Positions 4,185 through 61,215 of a DNA stretch of 64,000 nt are shown piece after piece. The notes beneath the pieces were generated by a model. The model did not search any database. It had not been told where the DNA came from and saw only the letters and a program-made list of their open reading frames with translations. This DNA is from Paenibacillus sp. 32352 (lineage in GTDB: Bacteria > Bacillota > Bacilli > Paenibacillales > NBRC-103111): positions 124,001-188,000 of the forward strand of contig NZ_MZNT01000009.1 in assembly GCF_002042965.1 (NCBI RefSeq), given 5' to 3'. How positions within the stretch are numbered: position 1 is the first letter of the stretch; the number at the start of each line of letters is the position of its first letter. The position numbers and the translations under genes were made by a program.

Positions 4185-4193
4185 TGAAAAAGT

Positions 4194-4209
4194 GACCTCG
4201 AAAGAGGTC
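4194..4209 (+). repeat. Left 16-bp duplication (hairpin of the DUF805 terminator)
   Basis: GACCTCGAAAGAGGTC, identical to 4455-4470. It is the hairpin of the gene's terminator (6-bp stem, GAAA loop), preceded by AAAAAGT but followed by AAAGGTG rather than a T run. The outer bases differ on both sides (T/A before, A/T after), so the duplication is exactly 16 bp. Confidence 0.85.
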
Positions 4210-4454
4210 AAAGGTGTTGTAAAACTCTGTTTTGCGTGAACTATGCTACATAGGGAGGTGGGGTATGCCTCGGAGGAGTTTACGTCCGCCTTTGAAACCC
4301 GTGAAAATACCGCTAAATCCAATCCAATTCACGGGTTTCAACAGCTATGGGCTTTGTGTAGCAAAGCCTGCTTCGGAAGCCTGGCTGGAGGGGGATACCC
4401 CACTGGAGTATATTGGCAGTAGTTCAAGCTTCACAGGTTTTTCAACAGACTCTA
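4210..4454 (+). ncRNA. Terminator-inserted structured RNA element, copy 1 core (245 nt)
   Basis: There is no plausible protein. Bases 4229-4318 match 60990-61079 of copy 2 at 88 of 90 positions without gaps. The ends can pair (TGTTG 4215-4219 with CAACA 4443-4447, plus adjoining A/T pairs). An inner helix pairs GAACTAT 4238-4244 with GTAGTTC 4419-4425. A perfect 14-bp hairpin joins 4292-4305 with 4328-4341. A variable arm at about 4342-4400 contains extra hairpins (GGCTTTG/CAAAGCC, GCTTC/GAAGC) that copy 2 lacks. The arrangement indicates a folded RNA that can move. I do not recognise the family; a bioinformatically described structured-RNA motif is possible. Confidence 0.75.
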
Positions 4455-4482
4455 GACCTCGAAAGAGGTCTCTTTTTTTGCC
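4455..4482 (+). terminator. Right 16-bp duplication with U-tract: working terminator
   Basis: GACCTCGAAAGAGGTC at 4455-4470 followed by TCTTTTTTTG. This is the second copy of the hairpin at 4194-4209, and only this copy keeps the T run. It should terminate the DUF805 transcript after the inserted element. Confidence 0.85.
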
Positions 4483-60952: not shown

Positions 60953-60968
60953 CTCTAGCTCAGGCTAG
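60953..60968 (+). repeat. Left 16-bp duplication (terminator hairpin)
   Basis: CTCTAGCTCAGGCTAG, identical to 61179-61194. Outer flanks TCTAAACGAAAATAAC (60937-60951 region) and GTTATTTTCGTTTAGA (61197 on) are complementary. This shows that one long terminator stem was opened by the insertion. Confidence 0.85.
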
Positions 60969-61178
60969 GTTAGATTGTTGAGAAAACCTGTTTTGCGAGA
61001 ACTATGCTACATATGGAGGTGGGGTATGCCTCGGAGGAGTTTACGTCCGCCTTTGAAACCCGTGAAAATACCGCTAAATAGAATCACCTTTCACGGGTTT
61101 CAATAGCGGCTGGAGGGGCATGTCCCATCGGAGTATATTGGCAATAGTTCAAGCTCTATAGGTTTCTAAACAGATTCA
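60969..61178 (+). ncRNA. Terminator-inserted structured RNA element, copy 2 core (210 nt)
   Basis: Same family as 4210-4454. Shared helices: terminal pairing (TGTT 60976-60979 with AACA 61169-61172 and adjoining bases); inner helix GAACTAT 60999-61005 with ATAGTTC 61144-61150, a T-A where copy 1 has T-G; and the 14-bp hairpin 61053-61066/61090-61103. The GGGG-CATG-TCCC arm replaces GGGG-ATA-CCCC of copy 1, changing sequence but keeping pairing. The variable arm is 35 nt shorter than in copy 1. CCGCTA in the hairpin loop can also pair with TAGCGG just downstream, a possible pseudoknot. No ORF. Confidence 0.75.
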
Positions 61179-61215
61179 CTCTAGCTCAGGCTAGAGTTAT
61201 TTTCGTTTAGACAGG
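61179..61215 (+). terminator. Right duplication with restored terminator arm
   Basis: CTCTAGCTCAGGCTAG (61179-61194) then AGTTATTTTCGTTTAGA. With the left flank it reconstitutes the original long-stem bidirectional terminator. Confidence 0.75.

What the first reader, a model, noticed from the sequence alone, without database searches (positions are those of the whole stretch)
4194..4470. Protein-free element inserted in a terminator, with an exact 16-bp duplication of the terminator hairpin
Seen: GACCTCGAAAGAGGTC flanks a 245-nt core whose 90-nt segment (4229-4318) matches a second locus 57 kb away at 88 of 90 positions. The duplicated sequence differs between the loci but is identical within each, as expected for a target-site duplication. 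In both cases it is 16 bp and is the hairpin of a Rho-independent terminator. Inference: a mobile or mobilisable structured RNA that recognises terminator hairpins. No transposase or reverse transcriptase is linked.
Basis: partly seen in the sequence, partly recalled or inferred. Interest (0 to 1): 0.9.

Follow-up and report, generated by a model that had tools for sequence, protein, structure and literature searches.

The report
Jumping DNA that copies transcription terminators
The element is a small, gene-less DNA transposon that lands in the hairpin-shaped stop signals at the ends of bacterial genes and copies the whole hairpin as it lands, so that a hairpin remains on each side of it.

Summary
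In detail: an exact 16-bp terminator-hairpin duplication around a 245-nt core that matches a second locus at 88 of 90 positions. The element is not a mobile RNA but a MITE: inverted ends, no gene, 62 copies found in this genome. A transposase remnant of the IS1182 family in the same genome lies behind the same end sequence, and intact IS1182-family elements elsewhere have the same end motif and the same habit.

In 45 of 45 events with an exact duplication of at least 12 bp, the duplication is centred on a hairpin axis; its length varies from 13 to 45 bp, also among copies of one IS in one genome. Three plasmid pairs show the exact empty site; one MITE copy has empty orthologous terminators in two related genomes. 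One derived clade duplicates 6-7 bp between the arms of a short palindrome instead.

Papers on IS1272 (same family) report hairpin targeting with hairpin loss, and draw whole-hairpin and loop duplication as possible pathways. Best explanation: structure-guided joining at the two 5' feet of the hairpin, then repair that copies the hairpin; this step is inferred. The kind is known; this natural form of it was not found in print by my searches.

The parts
4187..4191 (+). A-run before the left hairpin; with the T-run at 4473-4479 it makes the original target look like a two-way terminator
   Evidence: read
4194..4209 (.). left copy of the duplicated terminator hairpin
4210..4454 (+). MITE core, long form (245 nt between the hairpins); about 5 nt outside each TGT motif belong to the element, 4453-4454 may belong to the target
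4215..4226 (+). left terminal inverted repeat (2 mismatches to TGTYGARAAACC)
4258..4269 (+). arm of inner inverted repeat, pairs with 4392-4403
4292..4305 (+). arm of inner inverted repeat, pairs with 4328-4341; the 21-nt core pattern lies at 4291-4311
4349..4458 (+). right half, 94 of 110 positions identical to the end of the IS1182 remnant locus L031
4436..4447 (-). right terminal inverted repeat
4455..4470 (.). right copy of the duplicated terminator hairpin
4473..4479 (+). T-run of the terminator
   Evidence: read
60953..60968 (.). second MITE copy (L017): left copy of its own duplicated hairpin
60971..61177 (+). second MITE copy, short form; inverted repeats at 60976-60987 and 61161-61172, each with 1 mismatch
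61179..61194 (.). second MITE copy: right copy of its duplicated hairpin

Best explanation
The element is a MITE: an internally deleted derivative of an IS1182-family insertion sequence, moved in trans by an IS1182-type DDE transposase. The transposase takes intrinsic-terminator hairpins as targets by their shape. The two strand joinings fall symmetrically at the two 5' feet of the hairpin (one on each strand of a cruciform, or of a transiently single-stranded hairpin). Host repair then copies the whole hairpin on both sides, so the duplication is as long as the hairpin allows and not of fixed length. At a two-way terminator the left copy keeps the A-run and the right copy the T-run, so termination from both sides should survive. 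SHOWN by sequence: kinship of the ends, duplicated hairpins, symmetry about the hairpin axis, variable length, empty sites. INFERRED: movement in trans, recognition of an extruded hairpin, joining at the 5' feet, little effect on termination.
For: 62 core copies, control 0. Inverted ends in 60 of 62 (at up to 4 mismatches in 12) and flank likeness above the null's 99% point in 40 of 58 usable copies, above its maximum in 26 of 58. Seven copies fall in two groups with identical cores; the five of them with both flanks in view have different hairpins, which suggests recent movement. IS1182 transposase fragment L031 behind the MITE's right end, 94 of 110 nt. Intact ISs of the same end motif with duplicated hairpins. 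Duplication centre within 1 nt of the hairpin axis in 45 of 45 events chosen for an exact duplication of 12 bp or more; lengths 13-45 bp. In G033, 11 of 13 fetched copies of one IS gave exact duplications of 13-45 bp. Exact empty sites in three plasmid pairs, 0 mismatches over 119-128 bp. Empty orthologous terminators of MITE copy L098 in G011 and G004 and paralogous empty hairpins for copy L096. Pathway 'b' of the IS1272 model predicts this outcome (PMC5678879).
Against: 18 of 58 MITE copies do not exceed the null's 99% point. 21 of 93 IS loci with assigned ends show no duplication, about 10 of them by my reading between two different hairpins. No intact transposase was found in the own genome: four fragments, none over the family cut-off. 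Only the right half of the MITE has a matched partner; no left half was matched to an IS. No alignable empty site for the window's own copy. The duplication often stops inside the paired A-run/T-run, and its correlation with full pairing length is only moderate (Spearman 0.45, p 0.002). Other IS1182-family members are reported with 4-bp or no duplications (PMC3196728, PMC3281130, PMC3852290) or with loss of the hairpin (PMC4923244, PMC5678879). Cruciform against single-stranded hairpin against plain dsDNA palindrome is untested.
Confidence: 0.85

Rival explanations
1. Same MITE and IS1182 transposase, but the enzyme recognises a double-stranded palindrome by sequence symmetry (a dimer with flexible spacing) and not an extruded hairpin.
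For: Every target is a palindrome, so symmetry alone could guide it. In the clade with 6-7 bp duplications the arms share sequence between targets: 4.55 of 8 positions pair even when flanks of different loci are combined, against 6.0 for true pairs.
Against: Distances between the two joinings run from 13 to 45 bp for one IS in one genome, hard to span for one protein complex on plain duplex DNA, while the two feet of an extruded hairpin are always close. I saw no shared sequence in the hairpins of the whole-hairpin type (by eye; not tested).
Confidence: 0.2
2. A mobile or mobilisable structured RNA: an RNA inserts itself at terminator hairpins by reverse splicing or reverse transcription.
For: The transcript would fold very well (-123.7 kcal/mol, z -8.33); 12 of 33 consensus pairs have a change on both sides among 50 short copies (no control for relatedness).
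Against: Strong folding is expected of a self-complementary MITE. DNA-transposon ends, IS1182 kinship, and ISs with the same ends making the same duplications. No Rfam match.
Confidence: 0.02
3. The hairpins are part of the element, or arose by recombination or conversion, and are not target-site duplications.
For: Some ISs lie between two different hairpins (about 10 of 93 by eye), so recombination between copies does occur.
Against: Hairpins differ between copies with identical cores, and empty sites hold one copy of the same hairpin.
Confidence: 0.02

Closest known systems
IS1272 / TnSha1 (IS1182 family, staphylococci; PMC4923244 passages, PMC5678879)
   Same: Same transposase family; targets are hairpins without shared sequence, several of them terminators; variable target size reported (21-85 bp).
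   Different: IS1272 deletes or replaces the hairpin and makes no target duplication; here the hairpin is duplicated. That paper drew hairpin duplication and loop duplication only as pathways of a model, in the part that I read.
IS1182-related MITEs of Methanosarcina acetivorans (partner ISMac2; PMC3852290 passages)
   Same: MITEs of 160 and 169 bp, 14 and 7 copies, whose partner is an IS1182-family element.
   Different: Direct repeats listed as 4 and 0 bp; no hairpin duplication mentioned in the passages seen.
ISBspe1 (IS1182 family, Alkalihalophilus pseudofirmus; name from the annotation of hit H4)
   Same: Loci L185, L191 and L194 of A. pseudofirmus OF4 show duplicated whole hairpins of 20, 23 and 23 bp and the same end motif. 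L185 is the annotated plasmid copy; the other two are taken as the same IS by likeness.
   Different: Autonomous IS of about 1.56 kb, not a MITE.
Group IIC introns at terminators; IS1397 in the loop of palindromic units (both recalled, no call)
   Same: Mobile elements that settle at or in hairpins.
   Different: Group IIC introns move as RNA without target duplication; IS1397 is of the IS3 family and duplicates a few bp.

Membership tests
MITE | short, repeated, no coding capacity for a transposase, terminal inverted repeats | tested here: met
   62 copies; both ends found in 60 of 62; 50 of those 60 are about 196 nt. Absence of a gene rests on length, not on a test.
MITE | target-site duplication that differs between copies | tested here: met
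   40 of 58 above the null's 99% point; 13 exact duplications of 16-37 bp
MITE | autonomous partner with the same ends | tested here: inconclusive
   Right half matched to a transposase remnant, 94 of 110 nt; intact ISs share the end motif only; no intact partner in the own genome
IS1182 family (partners) | transposase over the NCBIfam cut-off for transpos_IS1182 | tested here: met
   4 of 4 full-length transposases tested score 431.7-484.6 against a cut-off of 270; the own-genome fragment scores 211.8, below it
IS1182 family (partners) | terminal inverted repeats at both ends | tested here: met
   both ends assigned in 70 of the 80 scan loci
IS1272-type hairpin replacement | loss of the target hairpin, no target duplication | tested here: not met
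   hairpin kept and duplicated in three filled/empty plasmid pairs
Rfam ncRNA family | match to a covariance model | tested here: not met
   0 matches at gathering score in the window; 0 at E up to 0.1 in L001, L098 and L245
Group II / IIC intron | catalytic core or reverse transcriptase | tested here: not met
   no Rfam match of any intron family in the window; reverse transcriptase was not searched for separately

The most novel reading that the evidence does not exclude
In a large part of the IS1182 family, in Bacillota, alpha- and gammaproteobacteria and a Desulfuromonadales bin, the target is a DNA hairpin read as a shape, and the place of joining on that hairpin is what evolves: at the 5' feet (whole hairpin duplicated; this MITE and its kin), at the loop in one derived clade (6-7 bp duplicated), and elsewhere in the family the hairpin is lost (IS1272, published). 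The length of the target duplication is then set by the target and not by the enzyme, and elements that duplicate terminators spread at little cost because they rebuild the stop signal on both sides.
Probability: 0.6. Interest if true: 0.75.

Novelty: new variant of a known kind. Interest (0 to 1): 0.62.

Why it matters
DDE transposons as a rule make target duplications of fixed length, because the enzyme sets the stagger of the joining (recalled). Here the target sets it, up to 45 bp, which points to joining on an extruded hairpin. The series whole hairpin, loop, and lost hairpin within one transposase family makes a mechanism that was so far drawn as a model directly testable by comparing close relatives. 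It also shows how mobile DNA can spread through gene ends while leaving a stop signal on both sides, and it warns that paired terminators may be footprints of transposition.

Tried and rejected
RNA mobility: rejected after the transposon ends and the IS remnant were found. Known ncRNA: no Rfam match. MITE in phage or plasmid records: no blastn match at E 1e-5. Empty site of the window's own copy: the one flank match outside MITEs was G007 (L134), whose downstream region I could not align by eye, so it is inconclusive; copies L098 and L096 served instead. Insertion modes on a tree of 41 transposases: the 6-7 bp label is confined to one clade, the whole-hairpin label is not significantly clustered (82 of 500 shuffles as low); in that tree L236, L239, L240 and L242 were labelled 'na' and proved whole-hairpin type only afterwards. 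Covariation of the MITE fold: seen but without a control for relatedness, so not used as evidence for an RNA function. A-run and T-run counts have no chance control. Papers: ten searches over open-licence PMC papers only; by listings and the passages I read, none described whole-hairpin duplication with examples. Seen as passages only: PMC4923244, PMC9782665, PMC3852290, PMC3196728, PMC3281130, PMC10969869; of PMC5678879 the abstract, outline, passages and part 1 of 2 of the Discussion; one paper was not held. I recall, unverified, that ISfinder lists direct repeats of 0-60 bp for IS1182; if so, long duplications in the family have been recorded before.

Recounts made for this filing: both ends were assigned in 70 of the 80 scan loci (10 were not: L166, L173, L174, L189, L190, L207, L216, L219, L220, L221), so the 93 IS loci are these 70, 10 loci of relatives, 6 plasmid loci and 7 of 8 further G033 loci.

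Full report
OBSERVATION. The 16-bp repeat, the 245-nt core and the 88-of-90 match to the second locus are present. The core is not a two-copy curiosity. A DNA search of the window's own genome (unnamed, 7.9 Mb in 70 contigs) had 146 first-look candidates, of which 40 were scored. A 21-nt core pattern with up to 3 mismatches occurs at 62 places, 35 forward and 27 reverse, against 0 for the reversed control.

ANATOMY. All 62 places were read (30 loci, 32). Both terminal inverted repeats (TGTYGARAAACC and its complement, up to 4 mismatches in 12) were found in 60 of 62 (not in L103 and L121); two more lie at contig ends (L095, L097); 58 were used for flanks. About 5 nt outside each repeat (such as CAGGN or GAGTC) belong to the element, then comes the hairpin. 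Of the 60, 50 are a short form of about 196 nt; the window copy is a long form with an extra inner stretch. The copy at 60953-61194 is a short form. Folded as RNA, the window copy with its hairpins is far more stable than shuffles (z -8.33).

FLANKS. The alignment score of left against right flank has median 15.25 against 6 for 3306 mismatched pairs; 43 of 58 score 10 or more, 40 exceed the null's 99% point, 26 exceed its maximum, and 18 do not exceed the 99% point. A hairpin of stem score 7 or more stands in 30 of 58 left and 34 of 58 right flanks, against 1.7% of shuffles. Both hairpin windows fold at -6 kcal/mol or better in 41 of 58, but 21 of 58 shuffled windows do so too, so this cut-off is loose; medians are -11.55 and -11.60 against -3.85. 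An A-run on the left or a T-run on the right is present in 51 of 58, both in 31, without a chance control. Of 57 copies with enough flank, 29 lie between convergent open frames of at least 80 codons, 18 after a left frame only, 5 before a right one only, 5 with neither; these are mechanical frames. In some older copies the two hairpins have diverged while each still looks paired (L012, L099, L106; by eye).

PARTNER. The own genome holds four IS1182 fragments, none over the family cut-off. One, L031, is a 199-aa C-terminal piece next to the MITE's own right end; 94 of 110 nt match the window copy (families). In G004, of the same genus, four loci carry pieces 85-87% identical to the L031 protein; each has an end starting CAGATTGTAGAGAAACCC next to a different hairpin and breaks off within about 330 nt. 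In other relatives, elements of 1.54-1.57 kb between the TGT motifs carry the end motif at both ends. A scan of named genomes with a transposase alignment found 370 relatives; the best 80 were fetched. Four of four full-length transposases tested are IS1182 by NCBIfam. MITE-like DNA matched 18 of 59 genomes (the own genome included) at E 0.001, richest in the genus (G004, G010, G011); weak matches in others were not examined.

USE OF THE TARGET. In 93 IS loci both ends were assigned (70 of the 80 scan loci, 10 loci of relatives, 6 plasmid loci, 7 of 8 further G033 loci). The script's classes are 23 whole hairpin, 17 loop, 24 other, 21 without duplication, 8 at contig ends. Reading the 24 'other' by hand, 9 are whole-hairpin duplications of 17-45 bp whose outermost bases do not pair, and 15 are 6-7 bp duplications with a weaker stem or none. 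That makes 32 whole-hairpin, 32 of 6-7 bp, 21 without and 8 at contig ends, of 93. Of the 21, about 10 lie by my reading between two different hairpins, as recombination or deletion between copies would give; 6 are of Paenibacillus sp. 2.1.

SYMMETRY AND LENGTH. 45 events were chosen for an exact duplication of at least 12 bp (32 IS, 13 MITE). In 45 of 45 the centre of the duplication is within 1 nt of the axis of the best hairpin of the rebuilt site; lengths are 13-45 bp. G033 has 15 matches with the same score to the L031 transposase. I fetched 13; 11 gave exact duplications of 13, 21, 21, 22, 26, 26, 26, 26, 27, 38 and 45 bp; in L083 the repeat is present but not flush with the ends, and in L126 one end was not found. 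That these copies are identical over their whole length was not checked. The correlation with full pairing length is moderate (Spearman 0.45, p 0.002), as pairing of the A-run with the T-run often goes on outside the duplication. The exact rule for the place of joining is open.

EMPTY SITES. Three plasmid pairs: B. pumilus pBP-T2 against pBP-33-3 (IS 1548 bp, duplication 28 bp), a B. subtilis plasmid against a B. velezensis and a B. subtilis plasmid (19 bp), a Klebsiella IncC plasmid against a Salmonella IncC plasmid (20 bp). The empty site equals the filled one minus the IS and one hairpin copy, with 0 mismatches over 119-128 bp. Three further records are also empty but differ: L233 by 2 mismatches, L235 by 6, L230 by an added T that shifts the frame of comparison. 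For the MITE, copy L098 aligns with empty sites in G011 and G004 that end in a terminator-like hairpin of partly changed sequence. Copy L096 lies in the end hairpin of a second repeat family, whose empty form is matched at 14 places with up to 2 mismatches.

BREADTH. Whole-hairpin duplication was seen in loci named Paenibacillus, Paucisalibacillus, Piscibacillus, Alkalihalophilus, a Clostridia bin, a Desulfuromonadales bin, Gilvimarinus, Marinobacterium, Marinicella, a Lysobacterales bin and Serratia. Of 6 plasmid ISs fetched first, 4 show it and 2 lie between different hairpins. Of 7 more distant plasmid members, 4 show it (Macrococcoides 22, Sutcliffiella 30, Peribacillus 24, Rhizobium 23 bp), 2 do not, and in 1 the ends were not found. 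These were chosen from the best 60 of 1114 plasmid records, not at random.

LOOP TYPE. In a tree of 41 transposases the nine rows with 6-7 bp duplications and one row without form one clade (100/99), next to a whole-hairpin element, L067 (joint clade 100/100). Beside the 6-7 bp, 6.0 of 8 positions pair on average over 32 loci, against 0.8-2.0 when the frame is shifted and 4.55 when flanks of different loci are combined; 20 of 32 have 6 or more pairs. So the targets share sequence, and a sequence-specific palindrome is not excluded. Most of the 32 loci are from two species.

MECHANISM AND WHAT IS KNOWN. Wan et al. 2017 (PMC5678879; abstract, passages and part 1 of the Discussion) proposed for IS1272 that joining at the 3' feet of a cruciform removes the hairpin, at the 5' feet duplicates it, and 5' of the loop duplicates the loop; they claimed the first for IS1272 and, in what I read, gave no examples of the others. 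Furi et al. 2016 (PMC4923244; passages) report hairpin and terminator targets with partial deletion, and cite a review that some IS1182 members target palindromes. Other IS1182-family members are listed with 4-bp or no repeats (PMC3196728, PMC3281130, PMC3852290; passages), so the habit is not shown for the whole family. The present data fit the 5'-foot pathway for the MITE and its kin, and the loop pathway for one clade. Cruciform or single-stranded hairpin is not decided.

VERDICT. It is a new MITE family with IS1182-type kin that place themselves in terminators with hairpin-length duplications. My ten paper searches found no such natural series in print, within open-licence papers only.

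Noticed in passing
L243-L256 (G000, e.g. C55:85858, C63:258959); filled member L096: A second repeat family of roughly 75 nt, ending in GGCCCCACTTTGTGGGGTTATTTT, matched at 14 places. In the six copies aligned, the shared stretch begins shortly after what looks like a gene's own terminator. One copy carries the MITE in its end hairpin.
   Followed up: partly
L068 (G033) near 1310; L064 (G007): The transposase is split in two overlapping frames at a run GGAAAAAAG, as in programmed -1 frameshifting; in L067 (G026) the frame is continuous.
   Followed up: no
L192, L210, L213, L215, L217, L218, L222, L227, L228, L065: ISs that lie between two different hairpins, as if copies had recombined or the DNA between two insertions had been lost (by eye).
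   Followed up: no
L124 (G000 C46:319996): After the right hairpin of this MITE copy the sequence goes on with another element-like end (GAGTTTATCGAGAAACC), as if two elements shared a hairpin.
   Followed up: no
L012, L110, L119 (G000): In these older copies the left hairpin is followed by a T-run where other copies have the element's outer 5 nt, as if the left terminator had regained its own T-run.
   Followed up: no
L095 and L097 (G000 C11:1-700 and C18 end): Two contigs end at MITE copies with identical cores, so the assembly breaks at these repeats and more copies may be missing.
   Followed up: no
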